64,000 nucleotides of DNA. It comes from Setaria digitata. Its lineage: Eukaryota > Nematoda > Chromadorea > Rhabditida > Setariidae. The position numbers and the translations under genes are program-made. This document shows positions 1 through 47,200 of the stretch, piece by piece. The DNA is taken from NCBI GenBank assembly GCA_003640385.1, contig RCAB01000163.1:1-64000 (forward strand). The letters are read 5' to 3'. The notes beneath the pieces are model-generated. The model saw only the letters and a program-made list of their open reading frames with translations, had not been told where the DNA came from and searched no databases. The first letter of the stretch is position 1. Every line of letters begins with the position of its first letter.

Positions 1-1
1 A

Positions 2-1696
2 GCTGTTGGTGAAGAGAAGGTTGCTGAATTGAAAAAAATGAAAGAGTCAGGTGTAGATTTGAAAGAGCTAAGTGCGAAATTCGATGAAATATTGAAGAGT
101 GTTCAAGACGACGGTATGAAGCAGAAAATGCTTGAATATGGTCCTGGTTGTCGTCAGGNATGTAGAAGGTATCGCCCGGCAGAAGCGTACTATTCATGAA
201 TTTTTGGAACAGAAAAAAAGATGGAAACGCGAGGATGGAAAAGACCGCTCTCTTGAAACTTATCTGCAGGAATATTTGAGATGGCTGTCGATGGAGCAAG
301 TGGAGGAACTGAAGAAGATGAGGAATAATGGTATTTCGAGGGCTGACATTACCGCTAAAATATTTCATTACTGGGATGAATTATCCGGTGAAGCAAAAGA
401 TCGTGTTACTGAACTGTTATATGGTAGCTGTCAACGAATTTTGAAAGAGGTTATTGGTGAGAATAAGTATAATGAACTAAGGAAGATTAAAGGCTCTGGT
501 GCGGACGTCACTGAATTGGAAGAAAAAACTGATGCAATGATAAGTCAAGTAACAGATGAGGAGAAGAAGGAAAAAATTAAAATTTACGGATCCGGATGTA
601 AAAGGGTTTTTGCAGCTATACATCACAAGCATTCGTTGGAGGAATACTTCAGAACTGACTTGAAATGGCTAACTGAAGAACAGATGAACGATATAAGGAA
701 GATGAAAAAGGAGAAAAAATCGAAGGCAGATATTCAGGAAAAAATATTCCATTTCTACGATAGTTTAGAAGATGAAAGCAAAAAGGAAGCTGCTGAATTC
801 CTTCGTGATTCATGCTATAATTTCATTGTGCACATTTTTGGTGATGAAAAGGCAGCGCATCTAAAGGAACTCGCGGAATCTGTTGCTGCTGCAGACAAAG
901 TTAAATTTTATTTCGATACAGTGATTAATGAGGTCGGAGATAAAGATCAAGATAAGAAAACAAAAGCAAGAAAATATGGCCCAATCTGTCAAAAAGTCCT
1001 TATTGATTATCGTGGTAAGCATAATCAGCGTTCCTTGGAACGCTATTTTGTTACACATTTGAAGTGGCTTTCTGATGAACAGAAAGAGGAAATCAGGAAA
1101 ATGAAAACTGTTGGTTAGTTTTCTTGTTTTCATTTTTGCCTCCATTGAATTGTCAAGATAATTTTAGTGATTGTAATGACAATTCAGTGTCATTCGAAGT
1201 CAGCGTTTTAAGATTTGCCAAGAAATATTGTTAAAAATCTGTCATCTCCATTAATTTCTCGGAGCATTTCTGCTGTAACGTATTTGAATACTTCTTTGAT
1301 TTGCTTAAGAATTTAGGATATATGTATCCTATGCTATGCTTGATTGCAGGGAAAAGTCGCGAGGAAATGCAATCCAAAATTTTTGAATTTTTCGAGAGTG
1401 CAAGTGGCGAAACGAAGAGATTAGCTACAGAATCACTGTTAGAAAGTTGTCACGAATTGTTCAAGGAAATTGGTGGGGAAGAGAAAGCCTATGAATTGGA
1501 TGTGTTGATACGCAGCGATGTAGCTTCCAAAAAACTAGAAGAGAAAATCAATTTAATAATCGATTCTGTGAATGATGAATCCGAAAAAGCTCATGCTAAA
1601 CTTTATGTAACACCATGCAAGTATCTCTACAGCATCCGCAGTAATAGACAGAAGCGAGGTTGTGATTTTTTTCGTTCTATAAACTTAATAATGTAG
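2..1696 (+). CDS. Nematode polyprotein antigen (NPA/ladder), 3' part of array
   Basis: NPA proteins are secreted tandem-repeat precursors cut into ~15 kDa helical units that bind fatty acids and retinol. Seen: exon 2-1113 (open at the left edge) and exon 1350-1696, joined in phase 1 so that the repeat motif is rebuilt across the intron (KMKTVG|KSREEMQ). One partial unit and three complete units are visible. Each full unit has the hallmark Trp motif (RWLSMEQ, KWLTEEQ, KWLSDEQ) and a Cys pair (YGSCQ/SGCKR, RDSCYN/PICQK, LESCHE/TPCKY). Furin-type RQKR sites occur near base 175 and at the end of the last unit. The frame changes at the N at position 159, which I treat as an assembly error. After the last RQKR there is a short tail and a TAG stop at 1694-1696; a splice donor near 1660 into further exons cannot be excluded. 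Confidence 0.88.
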
Positions 1697-4600
1697 CATT
1701 CTGTTCTGAGTGGATTTTATCAAGCAGGAAAAAGTGGTACTGTATTAGGAGATATCATTTAAATGTGCAAATTCAAATACCGTTTCCATTCGAGGAATCC
1801 CTTATCTTTCGAATGATATTTAGAAAAATATTATTTGGAGAAACACTGAAATAAATTTTTTGTAAACAGGAGTTTAAATATGTTTGTTTTGACACATATT
1901 CGCATCTTTATTGATTTTTATGGTTTTGCCAGATGAAAATCTTTGTATATAATTATGATATTTAGAGTGTATCTTTCTTTTGCTTTAACGGAGCTTTATT
2001 TTCAGAAAATGGTGTCGCAACAACAAATTAGTTCACAGATTGAATTATCTTAAAATGTTAATGGCTCTTTTGCATCAGTTATTGTTTCTTGATGTTGTTT
2101 GCTGCTGTAGACACTACTATTATTTGCTTGTTTCTTGTTTTTTTTTTACGTGGATACAGAATCCAAATGAATTAATTTAATTATATTTCCGGCTGGTAAG
2201 CTAATGAAATATGATTTTATTGCATTGCTGCTATCTTTACTCACCTTTCAAAAAGGCTTTCCAGGACTTAAATTTTTTTGTAAGCATATGTTTATTTTGT
2301 GTAATCTGAACTGATACTCTTTTACCGTCTTTATTCCGAAACTGTTCTTTCCAAAAAAAAAGAAGGATTCATTTTTGTGTAATTCTTCATGGTTTCTATC
2401 GAGATAAACATTATCACCAGACGAAATCCCTTTCATTATTCGAATATTAATCTGCTTTCCTTCTCAGGAATGTGTTTAGAGTTAAATCATCACAGTATAT
2501 AACGATATTTGAAAGAAAAAAAAATCTAAGGACATATCATTCGTTAATTACTAAAGAATTGTGATGTTTCGCATGAAGTTAACATTGGGATCTGGAATAG
2601 ATCTGTAACTTCGTCCGGAATTTACTCTCTTCATAGCAAATATTAATGTTTTATGGTATATTCATATTTTGAAAAGACGAAATAAGTGCTAGACGAACGG
2701 ATTCTACGTGACAACTATGAAATCTCTTGTCATTTTCTTTTTTTTTAAACTCTTAGAAAGAAATGATGCGGAAGGATTTCGTAGATGTTGCTTAATCAAT
2801 GTTTAATTCATTTACACATGAATTACGCAACAACTATTTACAAACGTAATTTATGTTACCTAATAACAATAAAATTCATAAAGCAATTAATCTTAGTGGA
2901 ATATTTTGTCTTATAGGACATTTTCTAATAAAGTGTGTGGAAGATAGATTTTTTTGGTTTCACCGATTAGCTGTAAAGCAGCTATTCTAAAATTGTATTC
3001 GGCGAATGAAATTTACGAAATGAGTCATCAAATTTTAAATGAATTTTTGAAGTCTAAATTCATAATTTTGTAGTAGAGAATTGAATTTCTGGAAATCTAA
3101 AAGAAAATTTACACTTAAGAGCAGAAATTAATGAAAGAGAAGGTTTGGAAGCGATATTCGTTCCGGTTTGTGAGATAAGTGAGCGTCAGCTGTTCTATTT
3201 TAAAAGTTACTTGCGAATGTTGCCTCATAAATAATCGCATTCCCACGGATCAGCTGAGGCTTCGAGGCGGGAGGAGACGGTAGTAGAAAAAATGAACGAG
3301 AGCTCGAGCTTCCTCTTTTATTCTCAAAAATATTCCTATCCTCAACAGAATAATTATCATTATCTGAGGCATCGTCGGCATCGATTACATTCATGTTGCT
3401 TTTTTTTCTAAAGCCTTCTCTTTTATGGATCTTTCTTGATATTATTACGGTTAGTTTTTTTTTTTTTGAAAACTTATAGAATATTTTAATTTGAGATGCA
3501 ATTCAAATTCAGAGCATGTTTTCTGACAGCTCTGGTGAAAAAATTCAGTCTCTGTTATAGTTTCCAAAATACCACTCTATTAATAAAGACAATAAAATCT
3601 GGGATTTCAATCATGACATGAGTTTTTTTTTAATTAATTGCTGCCCCCTTTAAATAGTTCAATTTTTCTACAAATCCTAATGACTAGATTAAGCTAAATC
3701 ATATTACTTTAAATCAATTCCTTTATTCACCAAATGTAGTATTGTTTAGTATTTAGGAACAAATTACTCAGTAATGAGGAAGGATTACTGAACTACCATT
3801 GTTTATGATGACCAATTCAGTTTCTGATCTATCCTTAGTTGGTTCTTGCTGAAGTTGATATTGTTGATTTGTTGCTTCTGATAAGATATATTTATCATTT
3901 ACAGTAAAAGCACGATCTTAGCAAGATCCAAAAAATAAAATTCCAGATACAAAATCTCGGAGCGTACAATGCGAAAGTACTAACGTTTGCAGATAACAAT
4001 GCACAGCTCATTTCGAAGGTATTTCTTTATCCATTACTTTCTAGATCTCTCATCAAATCAAAAATTATTCATAATATTCGTAATTAATATTCATATTATT
4101 GAAACTATGATTGAATATTTCTTCATCCCTTTCTACTTCATCATTAATTAAAGGATTACGATGCTTTACTAAGTGGAACTGATACAAAATTTAAGCCTTA
4201 ATTTTATAATCATTACTGCATTTCGTGGATAATATCTTGTAGCAACAATGCCTCTGAGATTGCTTCACAGATATGACATGCAAAAAAAGTAAAGCAAAAT
4301 GATTTCTCCTTTTTATTTGAATTTTGAATTTCGAAAGAAATTAAAACAAGAAGCAATAAAACGAGCTTGTATTTCTACAATTAATTTCTTCACAGTTATA
4401 TTGATTTATTAGCAACGTTTCGTTTTTATCACTGAAAGCTTCCATTTTCAGCTTAATAACAATTTACATCTTTTTTTTTAAATTCAAACATAAGCTTAGA
4501 AAACTCCTTCTAGCTTTTGTGATCCACCAAATCCATCAACACTTCTCACCTTTTCTTCTTGCACTTCGTAAAATTCCTATCATTCCTTGACGTTTTCGTC

Positions 4601-5563: not shown

Positions 5564-8500
5564 ATGAAAGTATTCTTTGTTAGGAGCACGTTCATCCTTT
5601 TAAAATTATTTTTACAGCATCGAAATGAATATCAAAAAATACCATTGGCGATACAAGACGACGACTATGTTGACGAATTTTTTGTAAGAAATGAACAGTT
5701 TACAAAAATCCAAAAAGTAATCAGCAATAAGAAGCGAACGAAAAGAAATGTGAAACCGAGAATTAGACCGATAGAAACTGAAAATTTCGAGTCAGATGAA
5801 AGTTAGTTTCTGTGCTTCCCGATTTCTTTTGCTTTATCCTTGCATAGAATTTTATTGGAAAAAAATGCTATACTTGATGCAATATGAAGTGCACGTGAAA
5901 AACTCAAGTTCATTGAAACTTTTTCTGCTTCATTAGCACGCTCACACTATTAAACAACGCTTTCTGGTTTTGATTTGCCGTAACTAACACTACTAGTGTT
6001 TTAAGTTATGGCTTTTAAATTGTTTTTTTTTTTGCGTAAATTATAAGTTACTGCATTACTAAAAAAAAATAAAATATTGCTGAAATATTTCTCTTATTGC
6101 TAAAATGCCAATGATATTATGGTCAGCTACGCTTTTAGATCATTATGAAATCATTTAAAAAACTTATGGCCTGTGCAAACTTCTGCTCTTAATTAACTAG
6201 AAAAGTTTTGAAAATTTTGTAGTAGAAAGTATTTGTTTAATCTTTTTCAGGAGAGGACGTGTTATTAGCTATTCCGGTTGACGCATTCAGAGAGGAAGGA
6301 GGAAATGAAAAATGGGAACAAATTGGTAATTTAAATATGTGGAAATGGCTGACTTTAGAGCAAGTTTATATGCTTAATAAGCTATATAAAACAACAGGTG
6401 ATATAGCGGTAGTATTAGAAAAAGCATACGCTCTATTGCTTAAGACTGATGGAGGATTGCGAGAGATGGTAAGATTTCAAATTTCAAATTTAAGCGGTTT
6501 CTATTCACAGAGTTATGATACTTTTCAGGATTATATCAAACACAACTACAAATAAGAAAATTAAATTCCACTTTTTGAAAAGAATAGGTTTGAAGAGTAG
6601 TTTTGTGATTCAGCAATATTTTCTTCAATAAATGAGAGCAGAATTAAGATACTGAATTAGCTTGACTTGCAGATCTTTACTTTTCAAAGATTAAATAAAA
6701 TGAAAGTGAAGGGCTATCTTTTCGAGGTTCACTTATTTCATCGAAATACTTTTTAAGGAGTCATTTTGTTTGAATTTTTTTCTTTATCATTTTTGAAAAC
6801 TAACTTCAGTATTTCGTAAATTTATAATTACTTCAAGACGAAGTAGAATCAGATGCTTTTTTCGAATCCCCAATTATTCACTTATATTTTGCAACTAAAT
6901 TACTGTTGTGATAGCGGATGGTGAATCATGTTCATATTATTTCAGTGTGATTTTATATTTTATTATGATTCTGTTCAGGGTTAGATCTAAGTAACGCTAG
7001 TAACGTATAGTCTTAGAATCCAAATCTACATCGCGATTTTTGCGACTCTGTTTGTGATGTAGAAAATCCGATGCAAATTTTATCACTAAATTTCATTAAA
7101 CATATAAATTCTCTATTATAAATATTCTAAAAAGCTAAGGTCTATAGAGAAACATTTAGTAATAATTTGTGTTTAGATAAGTAAAAATTTTTATCTACAG
7201 GCAGTACGAAGCTTTCGAGAAACATGCAAAGAGTTGTCAAGAGTGATATTGGGCAATCGAAATTATGATTTAATTGCTGAAATGTATAATTTTGGTCGAA
7301 CAGGAGCAGAAATTAGTAGGAAACTGAATCAGTTTTATGTGGGATTGAGTGAAATGAACAAAAAGTTTGCTGACATGGTAACATTCACTTTACAAATACA
7401 GTTTATTTAGATGGTGATTCAGCTAGCTAGCGATGCCATGAAAATGAAAAACGATTCAAGTTATGACATTAGTTGTCTTCTAGGAAGTTATCTCAATTCT
7501 ACTTGAAATGTTGCAAAGAATTCTTATTATTAGATGAAAAGAATGAATTTAAAGGTTAAAAATATGAGATTTCAGATTGCTCCAACTTGCATGCTTGTTT
7601 ACAATATTCGCGAATCACGATCGCTGAGATCCCCAAGAAAAATTAATGCCGATAATTTATTTATTAAACAAATTCATTGGTTTACTAGAGAACAAGTAAA
7701 GTTTGAAAATGACGATAAATTAGTTTGATCACTTCAAATCCAAGTAGCTTAATATGTTACATAAAAAAAACAATTGGATCAGAGATGTAAATTTCAGCAA
7801 GATGAAATCGAAACAATGTTGGCAGCGGGTTCGCCAAGTAAAAATCTTTTGGCCAAAATTTTAGGCTACTACGATAATCTTGATTCGTTGAGCCAGGAAA
7901 AAGTATCCCAGTAATGTTTTTAAATTTGAAAAAAAAAAACCATTTTAACCAATAGATAGAATAAACATTTCTTAAGCTCATCTTTCAAGCACGATTAGTA
8001 TACTTAAATAATTGCATTTACTCTTATATCATGCTAATAATTTAGGATCATTTGATCTAAGCAGTCTTAGCTTAAGGCTGTAATCTGTTTCTGATATCTA
8101 AATATTTTTTATAATGAGGTCGCACTTAACAGAGTAACCGATTTCACGAAATTAAAAATACAAGTGGTTGTGGTGAATTCATTGTACCAGTACTAGACTG
8201 AGACTGATTGATAGGAAGTTACCGAACACCAAATAAAATCTTTATAAACTAAGTTTTCTTTTTTTTATTTTCTGCAATTTCAGGGAATTAAAACAACTCT
8301 GTCAAGATCGAGTAAAGCGACTTTTGGGAGCTGATGGTTTTGAAATGCTCAAAACCATGTACAAAGAATCAACACGTCCCGAATTATTAGTAATCAAATT
8401 TACTCAGTTAGTTGGAAATTTAACAAACGAGAATCAGCGTTTGGAAGCGGAACAAGTGGGCACCTTCTGCCAGAAAATATACGGCATTGAAAGATTCGAT

Positions 8501-10916
8501 CTTGGAGAATTAACATCATGGCTAACGTCTGATCAGGTTTAGTTCTTTTAGTTCTTCTCAAAGCACAAGGTTCAGCATTTAAATTTGGATTTTTAGCAAA
8601 TAGGAATCTATGATGTTCAGTTACTTTTTTTTTTCACTTCACAATTATGATTATCTATTGAATTAAAAAATTCCAAGAAAATGAAATGTGAGGAAAACTA
8701 ATTTAGCCAATTCTTGCAAAAATTGATCTTTTTTTTCAGAAGCTTGAACTGGGTCATTTGATTCAAGATCATGACATAAGTGATGATGTTGTTTATGAAC
8801 GTATTTTTGAATTTTATGAAAAAGCTGAACATAAAAAGAAAATGGACGCGCAAAAAGTTATCGAATCCGGATGTAAAAGATTTGTTAGCCGAATGTTTGG
8901 CGATGAAATTGCAACTGTAAAAATTTTATGAAAATGCCAATTTGTATTTTGCAAAGGATCCAAATTATAATTATTCTACCTTTTTTTCTCACTTTTTGTT
9001 GTTTATTTAGCTATTTTTGTTTCCTCGGAAGGGATTTTCTCTTTTAGCATATTCAGTAGCATTTCAGAAACTTGAAGAACACAGATCGGATGGAAACTAT
9101 ACAGCGCAGATGCTTAGTGCGGAATTGGCAATGTATACAGCTGAAATAAAAGACAAAAAGAACAGACTAAAAGCCGAGTAAGTTTTGTCCGACATTCATT
9201 TATCATCCCTTTTATTTGGTAAAAATTTCTGAATTCAACTTTCAGAAAATCTATTCCAATTTGCAATCGAATCTACCTTGGCTACAAGGGTGATTGTTTC
9301 TGCAATGGTCATTCTAGCATTTGTGGTCCATTCACCTATCAGTGCCTAAACTGTGCTGACAATACATTTGGCATACAATGCGAAAAGTAAGTTAAAGAGT
9401 AGACAAATTACGAAAATAAATGGTGGCGAAAAGTTCTGATAAATCATTAATTGAAAATGAAAATTTCATTTTTTTCAAAGTATTGCTTTTACCATTCACT
9501 CAAATTTCTAATTTTAACTTACTGCAAATAAAACGATAGAATTAACCTGGCGATATCTTATTTGAGAAAACGCATTCATACAAATGAATGAGAATTAAAC
9601 AATTGAATTATCAAATTTTATATCTGCCATTATCAGTCTACAGTTTAAGTTTCATTATTTGAGTGGACTGCAGCAAATGAAATGTCTTTTAGATGTTTGG
9701 ATGGATTTGAAGGCAGTGCTTTAATAGATGGAATGGGTTGCGTATCAACCCGAACAAGCAGTGAGTTCATGGAATGTCTATGTAATAATCATTCATCACA
9801 ATGCGATGCGAACGGCGAATGCTTTGTAATATTTGTCTGATCACTTATTCTTCTCTAACTTTCAGTCAGAATAGGCCATATGATCGGTACAGATGCTGAT
9901 AGTGATAGAACGGGTCATTCAGGTATGGCTGACCCGAACACTCTACACATAGAAGTATTTGTTTCGGAATACGAAGCAATTTGCTCACCCCTACAACTAT
10001 AGCAGTAAAGAAAGGATGAAAAGTTTCATGTAGTCATATCTTTTTTTCCTTGTTAGCATATAGCGCGACTGATTAGATTACATCGCCTTGAAGTACTGAT
10101 GTAGTTATCAGTTTTATTCAAGTGACTAATTTTGTTCCTTTTGATAAGTCATATCAGTTTATTGCAGTCCTGCTTGCACAACACAACAGGTAGTCAGTGC
10201 GAAAACTGTGCCGAAGGCTTTTACGGTGATGCTACCCAAGGTACAGTAGAAGACTGTATTCCCTGTCCATGCCCGTAAGTTTATACATGGAAATTTGGAA
10301 GAAGCTGAGAAAATAGCACTGATAAGAAATAAGCTTAAAAGAATTACTCACTTGCTATTTCTAGAACTTTTGAGTGAGCTAGCCTGAAGTACAAGCAGTT
10401 CATATAAGTAAGTCTCCTCCGGTTTTTTTTTTTTACTAAGCTTGCTAAAAATATATAACTCACAAATGTCAGCTACGAATTTTGCTTGAATCTACGCCAA
10501 TTAGATTGTTCCTTTTTTTTTTTCCAATTAGTCCAGTTAATAACGAAAAATGTTGCAATGTACTTTTTAATTTATCTTGTTACAAGATTGTTTCCATGGT
10601 ACGCTCGATAGTGTGTCTTAGTGCTTCCTAATTAAGAATAGCAGTAGTTTGCTGTTTCATTTTTTCAGTAAACTGTTGTTTTCAAGACTTCTTAAGGTGA
10701 ATTTGTTTATTTAGACTTTTCTACTTGAAAAATTGAAACATAGAATTTTATTTGAATATAAATTAATTTTAAATTTAAAGGGATGGCGGAGACTGTTTTA
10801 TAAACGGTGATGCGTTAGTAGAATGCAGAAAGTGTCCCAGTGGAACTTACGGTACCACTTGCGAATTGCAACTTCAGTCCACAAGAGAAGAAAAAATTAT
10901 TGGAGTTATTATATAA
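5564..10916 (+). CDS. Secreted protein with degenerate NPA units and laminin-type EGF repeats
   Basis: Twelve exons join in frame to ~640 aa: 5564-5801, 6251-6468, 7201-7377, 7576-7695, 7798-7910, 8284-8536, 8740-8916, 9068-9177, 9246-9386, 9693-9825, 10168-10274, 10781-10916 (TAA). The N-terminus ([18 protein letters not shown]) resembles a signal peptide and is followed by a basic KKRTKR furin-like site. Three divergent NPA-like units follow, each opening with the Trp motif (KWLTLEQ, HWFTREQ, SWLTSDQ) and keeping spaced Cys. The C-terminal third is Cys-rich with laminin-EGF spacing ([44 protein letters not shown]). Function unknown; lipid binding coupled to matrix or receptor contact is inference. 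All splice phases match. The main doubt is whether 5564 is the true start or whether upstream NPA exons splice in. Confidence 0.72.
9246..10916 (+). other. Laminin-type EGF block of the NPA-like gene
   Basis: Exons 9246-9386, 9693-9825, 10168-10274 and 10781-10916 encode about three laminin-EGF modules. Each shows the C-x-C start, an HSS(I/Q)C motif in the first two, and a ...GFxG/FYGD/TYG segment near the last Cys. The block is in continuous phase with the NPA-like exons to its left, so it is part of the same reading frame rather than a separate gene. Confidence 0.7.
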
Positions 10917-11434: not shown

Positions 11435-13148
11435 TTAAAAAATAGTCTGAGGACATTCACAATCTTCCGTAACATTTACGGTATCGATATGAATAAGCTG
11501 ATTGACAGTAGGAATATCACGAACTCTATAACAACCATCTGATGCACCTTTACTTGGATTCTTATAGAAGCATTCGGTCCAATTAGTAATTGAACTGAGC
11601 TTAATTGGACATCTGCAAAGGATCTAGATAAACTTGTTGGCATTTATAAAATGTATGATTTGGAATTTAAGAAAATGAATGTTGAAATTAACACAATTCA
11701 ATCTTCTACCTGTAAATATTGCAAGGCATTCTCTCAGTCACTTCTGCTAAATTTTCAGGACAAGACGGAAATTTGCCACGTGAACGAATAATGCTGTAGT
11801 TTAGGATATGACGTGATCGAAAAGGCATTTTTGCAGTTGCCATGCATGTCTCCGAACAAGCACTCCATTCACTCCACTGATACATACACGGAAATTCATT
11901 TCCCGAAATTTTCGCTACCTGCAATTTTTTTATTTCCATTTGGAAAGATTTAATTTTTTTTTTTTTTTTTTTTCAAAGCATACCTAAACATAAAATATCA
12001 CCTGCATTATCATGTTATTACGTCTAGATATTTTATTTTCTAGCATGCTCATTTTTTTTTAATTAAAGAATTTTCCACAATTTATAATAAATTAGTATAA
12101 GAGTGGTAATGTTGGTAGAAAAGGAGTGATTTAAGCATATAAAAAGTTACACCATATGTTCAATAAATAGAAAGTATGCATTAAATTTGAAATTTCCATA
12201 AAGTCCAGCACTGCATAATACTTTAAGATATTAATTATGAAATGGATAAATTATGCGGATTTTTAAGTCTTTGTTATTTGATTTAATCTTTTTTCTCTAA
12301 TTTTATTTGTAAGTTCCTTAGCTCCCGCGAAATATGCTAAATGATGTAATAAAAATCTCAATATTGAAAACCACCAGAAATTGGTAATTGAAATGGGTAC
12401 CATACTATTGATGTTGAGTGCTTTAATCAGGAATACCACCATTGTTATAAATAAGGAAAACGATATTAAACCTATCACTAAGTTCAGTGCGGTAAGTGCT
12501 CGTACCCGTCGATCACCGATCACTCGCTATAAAAAAGATGGATTTTATAAAAATATGACAATTGACAAATGTCTTAGTTAGCAGTAAAGTAATTAATTTA
12601 ATTTTAGCATAACTTGCTTCATTTCACATCAGTATAACTTAATTAATTAATTTTCATATCAATGTGCAGTTATCATCTCGTTTAGAGTCTTCATCAAATT
12701 TTTAACCCTCTTAAATAATATTTCAAATGAGCAGCCAAATTGCATTAATCACCTTAAATATATAATATGAAAGAGATAGAGAAACTACAGGAGCATCTTC
12801 TGCTAAATCAGTCGCATCAGAGAGCTGGAAAGCCGTTTTTTACGAACTTATTTAAGTAAATTTTTAAACAATTGATTTTTTTTTTTAAATTCTGGAAAAT
12901 GCACAGAGCCCTTTAACTAAACTTTCTCTCTTTTTTGCATATTATTACTTTTACTAAATATCACGAGAATCAGTTTGACAAAACTGATCTGTGCAGCAGT
13001 ATTCGATGAACTCAAAAATTACTTCATTCGTCAAGGAGCCATCTTTGATTTCAGGTCCTTCCTTGAGCGTGTCTTGATCAACTTCTGCCTCAGGTATCAA
13101 TTCTGTTGCCTGTTTAGATAAGGCTGATTTGTGCGCATATCCATGCAT
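11435..13148 (-). CDS. Type II membrane protein with one thrombospondin type-1 domain (copy 1)
   Basis: Five exons on the minus strand: 13148-13023, 12824-12753, 12526-12401, 11918-11710, 11612-11435 (TAA). They give ~236 aa. Residues 1-66 form a hydrophilic, probably cytoplasmic tail. A basic segment (DRRVR) precedes a hydrophobic helix at ~77-100 (NLVIGLISFSLFITMVVFLI), so the orientation should be N-in. The ectodomain has a TSP1 start (MYQWSEWSACSETC), carrying the WSxW mannosylation and CxxTC fucosylation motifs, and ends in a Cys-containing tail with NWTEC. The start is the ATG matching copy 2; an in-frame extension upstream to 13337 exists, and an acceptor (ATTTTCAG) lies between. No family name recognised. 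Confidence 0.72.
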
Positions 13149-29260: not shown

Positions 29261-32200
29261 ATGTTGTGGAAGTCTGCAAGGTGGAAATACCACTTCTACT
29301 CCTTGGTATTTACTATTTTGGTCCTTCATCCTTGTTTATCTGATTCTGATCAGAAAACAAATCTTTTCGATGAAAATGACTCAAGGTAACATCCTCGCAT
29401 TCTTACCCTACGAATAGCTCACTACATAACGTTCGATGAAGATTCAAGTTCAAATTTCAGTTTTTGAACACTTTCTAGATGAGAAATGACGAAATTCAAC
29501 CTTAAAGTCTACTTTATATCAATTATTTCCAGATCTCGTCTTGTAATGCTCAACGGTAATATGTATTTTCATGCTGCACGACAGAAAAACATATCGTTCA
29601 TACCTGGTATTGGAGGTTCTATTTATTTTGGAGATAAAGATCTTGCCTTACTGCCGGATATGGTACGTTATGCGCTTAATAACCTACTTCTCATACCATT
29701 TTTTTGAATAAAACTTGAAATTTATTCAAATTAGAAGCCTGACTAATTCACAGAAATGAATACGGAAATCCCACTACCTTTACTCTGATCTCTAGTAACT
29801 TTATATTTCAGACTGAATTTGGAGTCATGAAAGAGGGAGTGGACGAGACTAAGGTTTACTTTTAATTTTATTAATACTTCGCTTCACATAATTTATTTCT
29901 GGTATCATTATCTAATTATTTTGGAATACTTTGTTCATTCAGAGTCGGGTTCGTCAACTCGTAAAGATGGCTGACTTATTAAAACAACAGATTAAACTGA
30001 AGAGTAGCGATATCGCAGCATTGAATAGAAAAGTTAGCTTGCATTTTGATTTAAAATCCCATCTTAAAAAAAAAAAAGAAAAGGAATAGCAAAATAACAA
30101 ATCGTTTTACAATTTCAAAGTCTTTATCAATTAAAAAATCAACCTTATAAAAAAATTGTCAGAAGGTGTGTGTGTGTGTAACTTATTTACTAATTACCAA
30201 CCAAATTTTACAATGTAAGCACATTTATACCTTTATATCACGATTTATGGTTTGCAAATAACGGATTATTAATAATTATTTATCACAGTACAGACAACAT
30301 GAAATATCTCAAAATCGATTTTTTTTTTCAAATTCAGGAAGTGAGAGGAGCAAGTGAAGGGGTACATTTATATGGTGTAAAGCAATAGCTGAGAAAATCT
30401 AGGATAAAAAAAATCATTCAATAGTTCAGAATAAATACTTTTTAAAAGCTTCATCTCTTTCAACAATTACTTTGTCCTGGAAAAGTAAAACGCCATAGGT
30501 CTAATTACACACTACTAAAAAGTATTACAAGGTATAATAAAGACACATAACTACAAAACATTTGTGGGCCGTGTACATATAAAATGAAGTTATTATTTTT
30601 CCATCATGAAATTTTGTAATACTTTTGTAGAAATTTTTAGTGGTCCCATCAATAAGCGCTTTGTTTGTGATAATGAAATAATAACTAACTGTACAAATTT
30701 AAGTGGACTTTTAGAGAGACCTATTACTCTTCCAAATTCCTGAAAGCAGTTTGCATTTGTTCTAGTAATTCATCATAATCTTTTTTGATTTTCTGCTCAC
30801 CGTCCTTGACTGGATCCTTGAATTTCATGGAAGACAACTGGTACATAATATCACCCATGTGATCACGAATTATGGCCCAGGAAATTTTATTTTCAGCTTG
30901 TGCGGTTGATTCTACTGCGTGTTTTGCTAGGTCGTAGAAAGCGATCATGTTTTTCAGCATCCCTACTGTTTTGTAGAACGGACAGAATCGATCATAAGGT
31001 GTATAACCATTCTGCTGCAGGAAGTCATCCTTGATCAGTTTAGCTACTTCCAAAGTGATTTTATCCGATTCAGCCAGTGAGGCTTTACCTACCAATTGCA
31101 CAATTTCAGATAAATCCTCTTCTTCCTGAAGAATTTCTTTGCATTTCGTACGCAAAGAGACAAATTCTGGGAAATTTTTGTCGTAATATTCATCCAATGC
31201 TCTCATATATTTGCTATATGATATCAGCCAGTTTATTGATGGAAAATGTTTACGCTGCGCCAATTTCTTATCCAAACCCCAGAATACCTGAACAATACCA
31301 AGAGTGGCCGAAGTGACCGGATCAGCAAAATCACCACCAGGTGGTGAGACAGCACCCACAATAGTCACCGACCCTTCACGTTCCGGACTCCCGAGACATT
31401 TTACTTTACCAGCTCGCTCATAGAACGATGCAAGACGGGCGGCTAGATATGCTGGATAACCAGAATCCGCTGGCATCTCACCCAAACGACCAGATATTTC
31501 ACGTAGAGCTTCAGCCCATCGTGACGTAGAATCAGCCATCATAGAAACATTCAAACCCATGTCACGAAAATATTCAGCCAAAGTAATACCGGTATAAATC
31601 GATGCTTCACGTGCGGCTACAGGCATATTTGATGTATTCGCTACCAAAGTCGTTCGCTTCATGATTGATGTGGTGACACCATTGACTTCCATAGTTAATT
31701 CCGGAAAGTCACGCAAAACTTCTGACATCTCATTACCTCGTTCACCGCATCCAACATATATAATAGCATCGGAATTCGAGAATTTGGAAAGCGATTGTGA
31801 AATAACAGTTTTCCCACAACCAAATGCTCCTGGAATAGCGGTGGTACCACCTTGAACGCAAGGGAACAGCGCATCCAGAACTCGCTGGCCACAAAGTAAG
31901 GGGAAGTTAGCAGCTAACTTCTCAGCGCATGGACGCGGCTGACGAACAGGCCAAATCTGAAGCATAGTGAATTTGGATTTTTCACCCGCAAATTCAGTTT
32001 CCAACACGGTATCATTGATATGATATTGAGCAGCTGGTGCTATGTATGTAATTGTCCCACATGCTGTTGGTGGAAGCATTATTCGGTGATTGATGAGAAC
32101 GTTTTCACGGACAAAACCGATAGTATCACCACCCGTGATGTGATCCCCGACAGTAAGTTTACGGTCTGGTTCAAAGTCCCAAGCTGCACCACGTGAAAGT

Positions 32201-35200
32201 ACGTTGACGTTAACACCTTTAGGGATGTAAATTGAATGCGTTAGTTCCACGATATCTTTCAACGGTCGTTGAATACCATCGAAAATTGAACCCATTATGC
32301 CAGGACCTAGTTCTACTGACAATGGTTTACCAGTTCGAAGTACAGGATCACCTATTGCTACAGCTGATGTATCTTCGTAAACCTGAATCGTAGCATAGTC
32401 ACCTTCCAAACGGATAATTTCACCGACCAGTTCGGAATGACCAACGCGTACTAGTTCGTACATTGCTGAACCGGCCATTTTCTCGGCTGTTACAACGGGT
32501 CCAGAAACACCGTAGACAAAACCATACGAACTTTCTTTAGCATCTTCCATTAGGTTGATAGTCGGCGGCATTATTCCAGTATATTTATATATTCCTCCCT
32601 GAAAAAGAGAAAAGAATTAGCTTTAATATAGAAAACTGACGTTAGTCTTGAATCAGAAATCGAAAAGGTGGAAATTTCTTTCTTGCAACATGAGCACTGA
32701 AAACAAATCACGCATACTTTTAGTTAACAATCAGAAAACTATTTTTGTTTAGTCGTTCAATATGAGCAAATAATTACATAACCAATACACATTAATAATG
32801 TTCTGAACAACACTAACCATTCAAAGAGAGAACCAAATGATCATACTGCTGGTTGAAGGGATTGGTTATAAGTGAGATAGCATAAACATAAGCTTACATC
32901 TCAATAAACATCTAACTCACAGACGAATAGTTTCATCTATTCTGTTACAGTTAGCTTTGGGATGATCGTAGTTGTACTAATATTACAGTAGCTCCGCAAA
33001 TACAACTTGTTATATAAACTGGAAACTTTAACTTTGACGAATTGCACTTATGGTACCAATTCGAATTAAAATACGTCGGGAAACAGATTTCGTGCATCCA
33101 GTAGAGTAAAAAATAAAAAAAATTTAGGTAAAGTTTAATTTTGGATGATCGTTTGAGAGGAAAGGAGAAAATGGTAATGATGACGTAGTGGTGTGTTGAT
33201 GATAATGGAGTGATATATGATATGAGATGACCAGATAGTCGATATCCTTTATCTAACTTTTCAAATTCACTGTTAAAACTATACTTTTGGCAAGACAAAA
33301 AAAGGTGATAAAAAAGACAAACATAAGCGAAAAGAGAGAGAGAAGGGAGAGAGAGGGGGAGAGGGAGAAGGTGAAGCAACTTCTCCAGAGAATGTCACCA
33401 AATCAATGGTGACAACGTCAACTTATCACACGACGATTGTTCTCTGTTCTTTCGTTTAATGGTTTTCAGATTTTCGTCCTAGGATTACTTTTCAAAGATT
33501 GTAGCTATAAATTATTTCAAAGTTTCAAAAAAAAATACTGAAAATAAAAAAGAGATGACAATTGCAAGAGCCAAATCATTGAATGATGAAATAATTTGCT
33601 GAAATGTGGATGATTTTGTTCAATGAACAGCCTTTTTGCACATTTACACAATGGCATAATTTAGTTGATAAAATTATAAACTAAAAGCTATTAGATAGAG
33701 ACATTGGAGCAGTAGAGAATTTCGTTTTTTTTGGAAAATTTGAAAATTCCTTTCAATGACTTCCTTGATACTTAGATAGCGGATATCACAAAACGACTAG
33801 ATTTAATCAGTTCGAAAAAGAAAGAAGGAAATGGAAGGAAATTTCGAAATTTGTTAAATGCTTTGAAATCGCATGTGGCGCTATTGGATGCTCGATTAAG
33901 GAAGGACGAATGTGCCGATAATCCATGCATGAATGGCGCAACATGCATTGATCTTTACAACAAATTCATGTGCATATGTGCACCACATTTTGAGGTACTT
34001 CCATCGTTACCCAATCTTTGCATGCTTGGTGAACGAGGCAGGAGAGCAATCTCTGTATCTCGGTATTCAGGATTATCTCCAAACAAATTTCACTGAAGAG
34101 TTTTACATTTCTAAATTAGCCAGGACTTTAATTTTTTTCAAGTTTACCCTTTTTTTTAAACTTTCTTTTAGGGTGAAACATGCGAGAAACGTATAGACGA
34201 ATGCAGCCTTTATCAAGGAACTCCTGCTGGATGTCAAAACAATGCATCTTGCTTGTTGAGACCGGGTGGATTCCAGTGAGTTAGTTACCTGGAGAATTGT
34301 GGAACTTCAAGTTAAAGTTCGGGAAGGGAAGGGGAGAGAGGTTTAAATATTAGTTCAAAGCTTTCACCGTTCTTTTTCTTAGATTATATATGCAAATATT
34401 GAAGCATACAAACTTCACTTGTGCATTTATTTCTATTGCTTTATTTGTGATTAAATTATGAGATGCAATTTCTTCCATTATTCTGTGAGGTCATACATTA
34501 AGCTTAATCTCCTTCATCAGGTTTAGATGAAAATATTTTAAGTTAATTTTTTTTTTTTTTAATTGCCTTATTAGAGTTGGAATAAAAAAATCTTTCCTGT
34601 CATAAACTTTTCGATTTTTAAGTTGCGTTTGTCCACAAGGCTTTCATGGAACTCTGTGCCAGTTGCGAGCAACAGCATGCGAATTTTCCCTGGATCTTTG
34701 TGGTCCCGCCGGACATTGTATACCAACTCAGCCAGATCCAGAACTAAATGAGGTTAATTAATCAACGAACTTGAGAAACTTCAAGTTTTTGGGGCTTGGG
34801 AGAGTGTTTTATTTTTCACTTGACGAAAATCTTCTTCCTATTTGAGCCTGGTTATCGTTGTCTATGTGAATGGGGTTACCGGTCTTCTGCCGACAAGAAA
34901 AATCCAGTTTGTGAGGATGTAAATGAGTGCGACTCAAATCCTTGCTATCCGGGAACAGCTTGCATCAATTTGCCTGGTTCTTTCAAGTGTGCTGGTTGTC
35001 CATCCGGCATGACTGGTAATGAATTTCTCATGACACAAGCAAGAATAACGATTATTGCTGCGAATATATTGATACGCTGAGAGTGATAAATTTCGAGTAG
35101 TATAATTAATAAGTACAAGTATAGCAGGTAGTATAATGAGTATAACTAAACACCTGTTCTTTTTTCGTAATGTTAATATCTTAGAAGTAACGATGGCAAT

Positions 35201-38200: not shown

Positions 38201-41200
38201 GGTTAGATTAGTTATGTTTGAAATTCTGTGCATGATCAAACTTCGCAGCATGTTATTACATTTTTTTCCTCCTTTGATTTGCTTTCCTTTTTCATTTTTG
38301 ACTCCAGTAAAATTTTATCTCTGCTTAATTTTCTTTAATTGCGACATGAATCAGGATATTGCAGGAAGTTTTAATTTTCGCTTTTCTCATTTGGAAACAG
38401 GAGGTCCTTCGCAGCGCCTATTGAGTTTGTTAAGACCATGTCGTTTTGATTATATTACGGTAAGCAGCAGAATATACGGTAGTTTATTATTGCCTGTTTT
38501 TCAATGTTTCACTTTCTTTCTACATTTTATCAGTAGATATTTCCATACCTAATCAACCTTCTTTGAGATAGCTTAGGTGTTGGATTTCTTTCATTCCTTC
38601 TTAACTAAATTTTCTTTCTCTAAATATCAAGTAGAAATGGTGAATTGGCTTATATATGTGATGATAATGATCTGGAATTTCTCCCCGACCCATCAGCATC
38701 AAGCATTCTCATGATGCAGCAAATTACTCACTTTTCTCCTTAAGAAATTAAAATCGGAAAAGGCTTGCTCGTGTTTCCTTTCGAACCGGAAATTATAACA
38801 GACAACTGAACAGTCTAATTAATTCCATGTCGTAAAAATTTCCACTGTGCTTTTTCATCGAGTGATATTAGTCATTATAGTTTAAAGATGGGGGTGATGC
38901 ATCACATCCTATTCTGGGACGATACTGCAACAGTAAACGACCTGAAGGTCCGATTGTATCTTCTGGCCCAAAAATGGTCATACAGTTCCATTCAAATCAA
39001 TCGATTAATGGAAAGGGATTCAAAATTCATTATTCTGCGGGTACAGCATACATTCCCTTCACATATTCGATAAGTTTTTTCAATTAAATGATTAATTAAA
39101 GTCATTCCATCGAGCCTACACCACTACTCGCAATATAGCGCTCGTGTAGTTTATTCCTTCCAACGAAGTGATCTTTTGATATCTGAAATCTCTGGAATTT
39201 TTTTAAAATTATGATTAAACTGTTAAGCTGGTCGAACCATCTCTATAAAATTTAAAAATTGAATTTTAGTTTGCGAGAAGCATTTCACATCACCTAACGG
39301 AACCATTCAAAGTTTCAATTATCCGAATGGTAGTGCTCAACCCTTTAAATGCACCTATGTTATTGATGCTGAAAAAACAAAAGCGATACGATTGAAATTC
39401 AGTTTCATTGGACTGAATACGGACATAAAGACATGTTTTTATGACACTATCAACCATAACCGATTGGAGGATTATGTCGAAGTCAGCCTTTTACAAGTTT
39501 TGCGAACTAATTGATTGGAATGGTAATCCCGAGAAGTTCTTAAGAAAATAAAGAGAAATAAGGTTGTTTGTATGAAAGTTTCACTAATAACGGGAATATC
39601 TTTGGCTTTCATGCATCCACCTAAGCTTTGCACATTATTCCAAAACTCTTAATCATTTAATTTTAAAAAATATTTTTTAGTTTTCGGGTAGCCATGAATC
39701 ACACGATCAAATTAATAAACGATATGTTTGCGCTCGATATCCGTTCGTTGCACCTGACGGAGAAATGGTATATTTTCTGAGATTTTTTTTTTTTTTTTCT
39801 TGCATCTTCCATATTTACCAACTTTTTTACACTTTACTTTACATTTTACATTTTACACTTTGCCAGCTTTTTTAGGTAACGAGTGCTTCGAGACCATTAA
39901 AAATTACACTGAGCTCAAGTGGTATTCATAATAAAGGCATACTTTTTTTGTACGAACAGTTTGATGTGGGTAAGTTGTATGCATTTAAACACGTTGAACT
40001 TATTTCTAAATGCAGCATGCAAAGTGTCTTCTATTTTATCTATTTATTTCTCCAGTTTGGCCATTTTCTTCAAATTAAAATTTTCAGGCAAAAATTTTTG
40101 CTCAACTTTGATGCTATTCAAGGTCACTATCAATGCATATTTCGGTCAATTGCAGGTTGTGGCGGAATATTTGAAGGCGAGTCAGGTCAAATAACAAGTC
40201 CGAATTACCCAGAAAAATATCTGGCGCATATGTACTGTATATATGTAATTAACACACCGGTATATTTGCGTAACTCATTTTTTTTTTCTTTTTTTCTTAA
40301 GAACTAAATATTCGAGACAAATTTTTCAAAGGATTTGTCCACTTGATATTATTTGAAGGGTAAGCGAGTTCGACTAACTTTTGGTGCATTCGAATTGGAA
40401 GTCGTGCCTAATCGAGAAGATTGTTCTTTTGACAGCGTCGAAATTTATGATACCTATATAAATGATAATGACCACAGCAAATTGCATGGAAGGTATGGAA
40501 TCTTTTAGACAAATTTGAGTAGTGATAAGATTTCAGTTCAGCTAATGGAAAATAGCATAATCATTGTTTCCATTCTTCTTCACATCTGAACAGCATGAAG
40601 ACGATGTAACTGAAATTATTACAATATTCCTTGTCCATTAGGAAAAGGTAAATGAACATATTCTATCCCTAATTTCTTTGACATCTTTCTTCTGTACAGA
40701 TTTTCAAGTATAATTTATTTTTTGAATTACTCTAATTTCAATTAAAAAATTAATTCTTTTGAGATTCTGCGGCACATTACTTCCTCCTCCAATTTTATCA
40801 ACTGAGAGTCGATTAACAGTTGTATTTAAAAGTGATCGCTCTGTCAATGGTGCTGGTTTTATGGCCAAGTGGGAAGTTGTTGATGATAAGGTAAAATGAT
40901 TTCGCGTTTTGTTTTGCACCTTTTTTGTTTTCATTGTTTTTATAGACTATTTGCTGACAAAATTTCTTAAATTCTAGCTCTCAAGTGATTTGTTGGAGTC
41001 TGAAATCAATTAGATAAATTGGATTACTTGACTCTATTTAACGATTTTGTAGAAATTAGACAATTTACAGACCGATTGTCATAGAACATACACAGCAACG
41101 AGCGGTACAATCACGATTCATGCCGAGACTGAAATGAAATTTGCGCAGTGTGACTATCAGATTGCGGTAATTTATTTCAGTTTTTTTTATTTTTTATTTT

Positions 41201-44200: not shown

Positions 44201-47200
44201 GAGAAAAAAAGAGGAAGAATTTCAGTTTTACTCGGGTACAAGTAATGCAACTGGTTTTGCTCAAAAAGTCATCTGTTCGAGCACAGAGAAGATTAATTAT
44301 ACATCACATACGAATGAATTATTTGTGAAATTCAAAATTCCCAGCAAGTTGGCTAAGCCAAATTCCGAAAAACATATCATGACCGGGAAAATATCGTTTA
44401 TACCTGCAAAGGCTGGTGATGAATGTGGAGCTGTTGTTGAAAGTAAGAGATTTCTCCCTTCTAATAGTAACAGTCTAAAGTTTGCTGTATTTAGGAATTA
44501 TTTCATGGTTAAAATAGGGCAAACATGTAAGCTACAAGCATCATTTGCTTCCTACTAGTCTTTTGTTGCAAGAGTTCGTTTCATCTTGAGGCTTTTTTTA
44601 GCCTACTTTCATCTTAAAAGGTACCTCTAAGTATTTGGGAATATTACGAAAGGGCAATAAATTTCATGGTGCCAAGCCTCATTTCACATTCCTGTCCATA
44701 TACTTTCTGGAATGATTAATGAGTTTACGTTTGCNTTAAGTATTTGAGAATATTACGAAAAGGCAATAAATTTCATGGTGCCAAGCCTTATTTCACATTC
44801 CTGTCCATATACTTTCTGGAATGATTAATGAGTTTACGTTTGCAGTAAAACAAAATGACACCGTCCAGCTACATTCACCAAATTATCCAAATCTTTATCC
44901 GAAATCAATTGAATGTATTTGGCTGATAAAAGCACCGAATGGTCACTTGATTCGTTTTAATTTAACGCATTATACGGTTCTGAATTATCATCCACAGCGA
45001 CCGGATATGAAAATATGGCGTAGTAATTTTGCTACAAATATTACGTATGTTTTTCCTAGAAACAGTAATTTAATACCAGTCTTTTCATTATCATTTTTTA
45101 CTTCTGTTGCTCAAACTATTATTACAGAATTTGATTTTAAGTTCAGAATACTGCATTTTAATTCATTCCCTGGTGAACTAAGAAGACTTGATCGCTTTAA
45201 CAGCTTTGTGTTTGAACTATATTAAGTTTTTTTTCTTTTTTTGTTTTAGTTATTTATGTTTATAGGTGCCAAAATTCGCAGAGCATCCTTGAAGGATCAA
45301 TCACATTTTATGATGGAAATAATACGTAAGTTTTTTTATGCTTGCATACTTTATTCACTTTCTATTTCATATTTTCCGAGTTTTTTACGTCATAGAGGTC
45401 TGGCGTAATTTTTGTAAAATTCTACGAAAAAAAAAAACATTTTATCGATTTGTAGATAAAATTATAATAAAAAGTGANATAATTTTTGTAAAATTCTACG
45501 GAAAAAAAAACATTTTATCGATTTGTAGATAAAATTATAATAAAAAGTGATGAAATCTCACTGTTCATCACAAATTTATAGAAATATGGAAATGCTGGAA
45601 CGCTTCTGTCACAACTTAAAGCAACCAAAAGTTATTACGTCAACAACGGAACAGGTATAAATCCCTACACATTGACTTTTTGTATTTTCGTTATTTTTGG
45701 GTGCTCTGAAGTGATAATATTTCAGGCATTAGTTACATTCCAAGGTGGTCCTTATGAACGGGCCTATTTATCGGGAGATGATGAACGAGCTCACCATATC
45801 GGTTTCCTACTCTACTTATCTTTAACATGTGGCGGTACGCTACATGCCGAAACTGAACTCAAAACATTCCAATTACATGTAATCAAAGAAGAGGAATGCA
45901 AATTTTTGATTAAAGCTAAAGGTTTCGATATCATAATTGAGTGAAATTAATTTAATTCTAATCTCATTTAAAACGACATATGTCTAATATAATCTGATTT
46001 TCTTTTTCTTTTTTTTTTTTTTTTACAGATGGGCAGCACGTGTATCTTCGTCTCGATCAGTTACATTTTAATAAACGTAAAACTCCGAAAATACGCGGTA
46101 AATCTAGGGCTACCGTTACTGTTTATGACGGCGCATCAGAAGATGCATCCATTCTAGGAATGTAAGCTTTTTGATATTTCTTTGTTTTCATGATAAGTTT
46201 TAGTAATTTTTAAATTTTTAAACATGTTTTATTAATTAAAATAAGCAAAGTGGAATGGCAAAAAGAACCAATTTCTAGTTAATGAGTACTTAGTCTTGCA
46301 GAAGGAAGAGGAAAATTTTTTGTGATGCATGATACCGCAATTCTTATTTAAATGTTGGCTTCAACTTTTTGATAAAAACAAAATCCAAATTTACGATATT
46401 TAAAATTAATGGATCATTCTAGAAAGAACTGAAAAAGCAGAAAAATATTTTTCTGGCCGAAACCCATTTGTAATATTGGGGGAGTTTTATCAACTGTCAA
46501 GACTTGTTTTGAAAGTACTTTTTCCTTATCAATCTCTTTATGTTAATTATACTAGCAAATATGCTTTCATAAAAAGTAAATTGTAGGGTAAAATTCTAAA
46601 CAGTTAAATAAAAAAAAAAAAAAACTTTTCTGATCAAAAACTTCGGGCGACATCATTACTGGATTTTATTGGAAAAATTTAATTAAATTTAAAACATCAA
46701 TTTCTTGTATGATTCAAGGTATCATCTCGAGTGCAATCCTTCGAGTTCAGGACAAATGTCACATACATGTGCTAATCGGGAATTACGCTCTACTGGTAGT
46801 GTTCTGAGCGTCTATTTGAGAGAATTGAGTACCTTACATTTGGAGCACATTCATTTCTCTTATTCAACGCATATTGAAAGTTTGTTTTTTCTATATAATT
46901 TATTTTAATATGTTTTTTTAAAAATTTTTGACTGTTCAGAATCAGGTGTAATTGAAAAATGTATAGGCTGTGGTGGTACCATCCAATCGCTTGCCGGAAT
47001 TATATATTATCCTTTTATTGAAAACGATTTTGAATGTGAATGGTTTATCGGAAATACGGAAGGAAATAAAGTGGAGCTCGAGATTTTGTATATTTTTCTC
47101 TTTTGTTGGCTACTAGTACGAAGTTTTCTATACATCTATTTGCATAACCAAATATTAGCACAATTTTGGTAAACTAAATGGCTCTATTCAAATACACTTT

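What the first reader, a model, noticed from the sequence alone, without database searches (positions are those of the whole stretch)
5564..10916. Fusion of NPA-like lipid-binding units to laminin-type EGF repeats
Twelve phase-compatible exons encode three degenerate NPA-like units followed by laminin-EGF modules. Classical NPA proteins are simple arrays cut into soluble units, so an EGF tail implies an uncut protein that tethers lipid-binding domains to matrix or a receptor. It sits directly downstream of the standard NPA array, so it probably arose from an array duplicate. I do not know whether this architecture has been described.
Basis: partly seen in the sequence, partly recalled or inferred. 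Interest (0 to 1): 0.75.

Follow-up and report, generated by a model that had tools for sequence, protein, structure and literature searches.

The report
Lipid-binding units joined to laminin-type modules
A parasitic roundworm has, beside its well-known gene for small lipid-carrying allergen units, what is probably a second gene whose lipid-binding units stay joined to modules like those of the matrix protein laminin; relatives of it occur in other filarial and ascarid worms, and I found no paper describing it.

Summary
Twelve exons (5564-10916, +) splice with GT/AG borders into one 640-aa frame. Each of three units passes the Pfam NPA cut-off (35, 98, 102 bits); two full laminin-type EGF modules and a truncated third follow. 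A Setaria digitata record is identical over blocks of 520 and 80 residues. A search gave 13 homologs: filariae, Thelazia, Toxocara, Parascaris and two unnamed. One is an unbroken 645-codon frame on contigs of at most 2,209 bases, best read as spliced RNA.

Corrections: units 2 and 3 are not degenerate. It is no recent array duplicate: the three units form ortholog groups shared with ascarids. 'Uncut' is too strong: an R-x-x-R sits at the unit 1/2 junction in 12 of 13 rows; at 2/3 in 1 of 16 and at 3/EGF in 0 of 16.

Best reading: a separate, secreted, matrix-docked lipid carrier. Main rival: the 3' end of the gp15/400 polyprotein, as a Dirofilaria model and Brugia glycosite numbering suggest. 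Lipid binding, secretion and docking are inferred. My paper searches found no description of the architecture.

The parts
5564..5801 (+). exon 1: start codon, hydrophobic leader ([17 protein letters not shown]) and pro-region
   Evidence: model; leader in the same place as MWLFLLKFCLLCLF-type starts of P0003, P0005-P0008; KD mean 1.63 here, 2.06-2.69 there
6251..7695 (+). exons 2-4 (6251-6468, 7201-7377, 7576-7695): NPA unit 1 (aa 111-220) and start of unit 2; R-x-x-R (RSPRK, aa 229-233) at the unit 1/2 junction
   Evidence: unit 1 PF16469 35.4 bits; limits; junction
7576..8536 (+). exons 4-6 (7576-7695, 7798-7910, 8284-8536): NPA unit 2 (aa 244-355)
   Evidence: PF16469 98.3 bits; PDB 2xv9 ABA-1A 5e-14; intron after the Gln20 equivalent, phase 0
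8284..9386 (+). exons 6-9 (8284-8536, 8740-8916, 9068-9177, 9246-9386): NPA unit 3 (aa 366-479), running without a spacer into EGF module 1
   Evidence: PF16469 101.7 bits; 2xv9 5.7e-6; linker [15 protein letters not shown]
9246..9825 (+). exons 9-10 (9246-9386, 9693-9825): laminin-type EGF module 1 (8 Cys, aa 486-532) and first part of module 2, with the NHS sequon (aa 548)
   Evidence: PF24973/PF00053; Cys positions; sequons
9693..10274 (+). exons 10-11 (9693-9825, 10168-10274): laminin-type EGF module 2 (8 Cys, aa 544-590)
   Evidence: PF24973 stretch aa 544-586; Cys positions
10168..10916 (+). exons 11-12 (10168-10274, 10781-10916): truncated third module (6 Cys, aa 593-623) resembling the first stretch of the laminin gamma-1 chains 1npe_B/1klo_A, short tail and stop codon; no membrane anchor seen
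   Evidence: 1npe_B/1klo_A first piece aligns CPCP..C....V.C..CP.GT.G..CEL; best C-terminal hydropathy 0.25
120..1696 (+). neighbour, not part of the gene in the reading preferred here: 3' end of the NPA array (exons to 1113 and from 1350; three units), own stop codon at 1694-1696
   Evidence: PF16469 196.3 and 58 bits; splice, units and stop

Best explanation
The locus is a separate gene of a filarial worm, Setaria digitata by protein identity. It encodes a probably secreted, disulphide-rich protein with N-glycosylation sequons: leader, pro-region, NPA unit 1, a possible furin-type cut (R-x-x-R), then NPA units 2 and 3 joined by a short fixed link to two and a half laminin-gamma/perlecan-like EGF modules. 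Most likely it works as an extracellular, matrix- or surface-docked fatty-acid/retinol carrier: units 2-3 hold lipid and the EGF modules keep them in place, while unit 1 may be released. Shown here: exon structure, domains, conservation among the Spirurina records found, near absence of R-x-x-R at 2/3 and 3/EGF, no hydrophobic C-terminal anchor. Inferred: separate transcription, secretion, lipid binding, docking, the cut after unit 1.
Against: No transcript or peptide of this species was available. The window's own leader is weaker than its homologs' (KD 1.63), and P0002 and P0004 lack one as annotated (-0.0, 0.87). Cavity I is altered (I67 to R/Q and Y112 to E in unit 2; Y112 to K and F116 to S in unit 3), so binding may differ or be lost; cavity positions overlap the hydrophobic core, so their conservation may only keep the fold. 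R-x-x-R also recurs inside units, where it is unlikely to be a cut site: RSFRE in unit 1 in 9 of 16 rows and RF[VI]RR in unit 3 in 6 of 16, so the motif alone is weak; this protein also has R-T-K-R at aa 58 and R-V-K-R at aa 298. The structure model is weak overall (mean pLDDT 53.7, EGF part mostly under 50). Nothing shows that the EGF modules bind anything. A fused gene model exists in D. immitis (P0016).
Confidence: 0.55

Rival explanations
1. The region is not a gene of its own but the 3' end of the NPA polyprotein gene: array and EGF tail are one very long precursor (gp15/400-like), and the EGF modules are its C-terminal anchor or folding cap.
For: D. immitis model P0016 (2,578 aa) runs from array units into this tail. 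In the window a phase-0 donor-like GT (TAT|GTAACA, after 1606) and the acceptor-like TTTTTACAG|CATCGA (exon from 5618) would join in frame (read).
Against: Five homologs have a strong hydrophobic leader directly before the shared region, and the cDNA-sized P0005 carries it. In P0005-P0008 the residue before LPNE/LQNE/LRNE is Thr; its codons ACN cannot end in AG, so an acceptor at that place is impossible there. P0016 drops the last array Cys and pieces of units 2 and 3 that P0003 of the same species has. The array has its own stop.
Confidence: 0.25
2. The EGF modules do not tether anything: the protein is a soluble secreted carrier, and the EGF part only stabilises unit 3 or serves solubility, dimerisation or secretion.
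For: No hydrophobic C-terminal anchor; the third module is cut short. Bm6084 is listed as 'uncharacterized' in a table of a B. malayi vesicle study (PMC11732158, one passage), though the table does not say which part was seen.
Against: Modules 1 and 2 keep their cysteine layout from filariae to Thelazia (P0001 is the exception, by a doubtful splice), more than a cap would seem to need.
Confidence: 0.3
3. Two adjacent genes, an NPA-like one and an EGF one, were joined by eye.
For: Exons 8 and 9 are only 68 bases apart, and such fusions are easily mispredicted.
Against: P0005 reads through on a contig too short for genomic DNA of this structure; unit 3's last Cys (aa 475) and the start of EGF module 1 (aa 486) lie in the same exon 9 (9246-9386, aa 469-515), so the join is within one exon; homologs of several genera have it.
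Confidence: 0.02

Closest known systems
Nematode polyprotein allergen / ABA-1 family (Pfam PF16469; ABA-1A, PDB 2xv9; gp15/400; DVA-1)
   Same: Unit length, profile match, Trp15/Gln20/two Cys, predicted fold of unit 2.
   Different: Only three units, divergent from the array, R-x-x-R not shared at 2/3 or 3/EGF, and a laminin-type EGF tail; separate ortholog groups in the unit tree.
Laminin-type EGF modules of laminin gamma-1 and perlecan (PDB 1npe_B, 1klo, 9i5a; closest own-genome match outside the locus C135:286691-286888, 53% over query residues 84-150)
   Same: Eight-Cys module layout in modules 1 and 2, and the CPCP..C..V.C..CP.GT.G..CEL half module.
   Different: No laminin N-terminal or laminin IV domain matched; only two and a half modules.
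Database entries 'Laminin EGF-like domain-containing protein' (Setaria, Onchocerca volvulus, Elaeophora, Litomosoides, Cercopithifilaria, Thelazia, Parascaris equorum), 'Basement membrane proteoglycan' (D. immitis), 'Laminin EGF-like (Domains III and V) family protein' (A. viteae)
   Same: Homologs with NPA and EGF domains.
   Different: The names come from the EGF part; no functional description found in my searches.
Trichuris p43 (Tm-DLP-1)
   Same: Works-alike only: a secreted nematode lipid carrier that also binds matrix proteoglycans (PMC12238268, abstract and passages).
   Different: The paper says its structure does not resemble NPAs; not a relative.

Membership tests
NPA / ABA-1 (PF16469) | Profile match over the curated cut-off | tested here: met
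   Three of three units: 35.4, 98.3 and 101.7 bits, cut-off 27
NPA / ABA-1 (PF16469) | Conserved Trp15, Gln20 and the two Cys (stated in PMC3079579, passages) | tested here: met
   W15, C64, C120 in 9 of 9 rows in each unit; Q20 in 7, 9 and 9 of 9 (the window protein and P0002-P0009; P0001 and P0010-P0014 not used)
NPA / ABA-1 (PF16469) | Seven-helix ABA-1A fold | tested here: met
NPA / ABA-1 (PF16469) | Polyprotein cut into single units at basic sites | tested here: inconclusive
   R-x-x-R at junction 1/2 in 12 of 13 rows, absent in Thelazia P0009; at 2/3 in 1 of 16 and at 3/EGF in 0 of 16. No peptide data
NPA / ABA-1 (PF16469) | Binds fatty acids and retinol | not testable with these tools
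   Cavity conservation only
Laminin-type EGF module | Profile match and eight-cysteine layout | tested here: met
   PF24973 and PF00053 over cut-off, two stretches each; eight Cys in module 1 (aa 486-532) and in module 2 (aa 544-590), six in module 3
Laminin / perlecan proteins | Other laminin or perlecan domains (laminin N, laminin IV, Ig, LDL-A) | tested here: not met
   Only NPA and the two EGF families matched in the window protein at E 0.01, and none of these among the 20 families listed for 12 homologs
gp15/400 polyprotein gene | Same transcript as the NPA array | tested here: inconclusive
   Fused models exist but leaders, codon argument and array stop speak against

The most novel reading that the evidence does not exclude
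Spirurine worms carry a second kind of NPA protein, a tethered one: unit 1 is released by a furin-type cut, while units 2 and 3 remain locked to laminin-like modules in basement membrane or cuticle-facing matrix. There they form a fixed lipid depot or hand-over station that exchanges fatty acids and retinoids with the soluble array units made by the neighbouring gene.
Probability: 0.25. Interest if true: 0.7.

Novelty: new variant of a known kind. Interest (0 to 1): 0.52.

Why it matters
NPAs are described as polyproteins cut into small soluble lipid carriers, and the value of making them as tandem polyproteins 'remains mysterious' (PMC3079579, passages). A conserved neighbour that joins the same fold to laminin-like modules suggests lipid carriers with a fixed address and gives a direct test: localisation and binding of units 2-3 with and without the EGF part. 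It may also matter for annotation: if this is a separate gene, proteomics that assigns its peptides to gp15/400 (perhaps Brugia glycosite 2867) is reading a different protein.

Tried and rejected
Recent array duplicate: rejected by the unit tree and by gene structure: units 2 and 3 share a phase-0 intron after the Gln20 equivalent, which the window's array units lack. Against this: the tree's array group has only 80/87 support, P0016_77 and P0012_234 are long branches of unsure place, and the tool warns that long branches meet.

Relatives outside Spirurina: none with NPA plus EGF among 13, 12 and 34 matches. In one search P0016 is the only one with NPA; the others are laminins, perlecans, or unnamed or hypothetical proteins with laminin-type domains. 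Searches scored only the best 7,998 and 7,994 candidates, and the search needs shared exact words, so absence in C. elegans or strongylids is not shown.

RNA families: 0 matches in the window. tRNAs: 0 (bacterial settings).

Paper searches; in their listings, and in the passages opened from five papers, no description of the architecture was seen. The library lacks most subscription journals.

Synteny in other worms could not be checked: no other worm assembly could be searched here.
Full report
What is there. The window is the start of contig C72 of a 75.6 Mb genome. Its spliced protein agrees with a Setaria digitata record (P0001) in unbroken blocks of 520 and 80 residues; that species is a filarial nematode. 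Twelve exons from 5564 to 10916 on the + strand give 640 aa without an internal stop, with GT/AG at all 11 introns.

P0001 differs in two places: its first exon comes from further upstream, and it skips the ...[21 protein letters not shown]... stretch of exon 10.

Domains. Pfam gives NPA in three stretches, EGF_LMN_ATRN in two and EGF_laminin in two. Each unit scanned alone passes the NPA cut-off (35.4, 98.3 and 101.7 bits against 27). Against ABA-1A (2xv9) the units score E 0.0099, 5e-14 and 5.7e-6. So unit 1 is divergent and units 2 and 3 are good NPA units.

In nine sequences with complete units (the window protein and P0002-P0009), Trp15, Cys64 and Cys120 are kept in 9 of 9 in each unit, and Gln20 in 7, 9 and 9 of 9. 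The cavity II positions listed in PMC3079579 (section 14 read) are hydrophobic in 95/108, 95/108 and 97/108 cells; cavity I positions in 66/90, 80/99 and 70/99. The background is 0.46, 0.34 and 0.35. Some cavity I positions are polar or charged in units 2 and 3, so cavity I may be changed. These positions overlap the core, so this supports the fold more than the binding.

The EGF part. Modules 1 and 2 have eight cysteines each; module 3 has six and stops. The nearest solved relatives are perlecan (8.5e-12) and laminin gamma-1 (2e-9), the latter also matching the half module. The nearest own-genome relative outside the locus is C135, 53% over query residues 84-150, which I take for a laminin gamma gene from its layout (recalled). 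Unit 3's last cysteine (aa 475) and the start of module 1 share exon 9, and the link keeps one length and the frame IC..IY.GY.G.CFC in 16 of 16 rows. No hydrophobic C-terminal segment is seen.

Relatives. One search returned 13 proteins, from Setaria, Onchocerca, Dirofilaria, Elaeophora, Acanthocheilonema, Cercopithifilaria, Litomosoides, Thelazia, Toxocara and Parascaris (two), plus two unnamed; 12 of 13 carry an EGF annotation beside NPA. One search added one partial Onchocerca flexuosa protein. Scanned here, 12 of 12 aligned members (P0001 was not among them) match NPA and PF24973, and 11 of 12 match PF00053. The ascarid records lack much of the EGF part after module 1, and P0011 has repeated stretches; they may be incomplete models.

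P0005 is an unbroken 645-codon frame from contigs of at most 2,209 bases. The gene here spans 5.3 kb with 11 introns, so this is best read as spliced RNA. Its source tag 'lgn' I take to be a public assembly of sequencing runs (recalled).

Age and origin. In a tree of 28 NPA units, tail units 1, 2 and 3 form starred groups of their own (99/98, 98/95, 100/100), each with its Toxocara and Parascaris counterpart. Array units with ABA-1A form another group, less well supported (80/87). Units 2 and 3 share a phase-0 intron after the Gln20 equivalent that the window's array units lack. The gene is thus an old sister of the array, not a recent copy. Two long branches are of unsure place, and the tool warns of long branches meeting.

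Separate gene or polyprotein end? For a separate gene: strong hydrophobic leaders in P0003 and P0005-P0008 in the same place (P0002 and P0004 lack one as annotated); the array's own stop at 1694-1696; a Thr codon, which cannot end in AG, at the would-be acceptor in P0005-P0008. For one gene: the D. immitis model P0016, and Brugia Bm6084, whose glycosite 2867 NHS (PMC10187950, section 17 read) fits the EGF sequon of P0005. P0016 lacks pieces that P0003 of the same species has, so I rate a merged gene model likelier. If the Brugia site is the EGF one, the tail is translated and glycosylated in adult worms.

Processing. R-x-x-R stands at the unit 1/2 junction in 12 of 13 rows (two of them, the window and P0001, are one gene) although the flanking residues change (RSPRK, RHPRR, RYRRS, RLSRS, RRIRK, RFSRE); Thelazia lacks it. 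At 2/3 it is in 1 of 16 rows (Toxocara), at 3/EGF in 0 of 16. Against a strong reading: related rows are not independent, and R-x-x-R also recurs inside units, in unit 1 in 9 of 16 rows and in unit 3 in 6 of 16. So this is suggestive only. It points to release of unit 1 and retention of units 2-3-EGF.

Novelty. The domain combination is visible in database records, but in the listings, and in the passages opened, I did not see it described. I call it a new variant of a known kind.

Noticed in passing
C264, roughly 1-3900 (locus L009), minus strand: The 5' part of the NPA gene (divergent units, then RQKRDEHTLESYFQTH running off the contig end) lies on another contig, so the assembly seems to break inside the array and its true length is unknown.
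   Followed up: partly
window 1-160: The array frame changes at an undetermined base (n, 159) near the contig edge; probably an assembly flaw.
   Followed up: no
window 9866-9954: The Setaria digitata record P0001 uses this stretch as an exon in place of the end of exon 10; the other homologs aligned do not, so it looks like a misprediction.
   Followed up: yes
window 11709-11972, minus strand: Frame with a spondin-like TSP1 stretch (PF19028 30.4 bits, E 4.9e-7, below its cut-off of 41), a convergent neighbour.
   Followed up: partly
window 30727-32616, minus strand: Unbroken 630-aa frame of a V/A-type ATPase catalytic subunit (PF00006 9.6e-75, PF22919 4.1e-31), notable for lacking introns.
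   Followed up: partly
window 39876-40304 and 44770-45222, + strand: Frames with partial CUB domains (PF00431 29.3 and 32.6 bits).
   Followed up: partly
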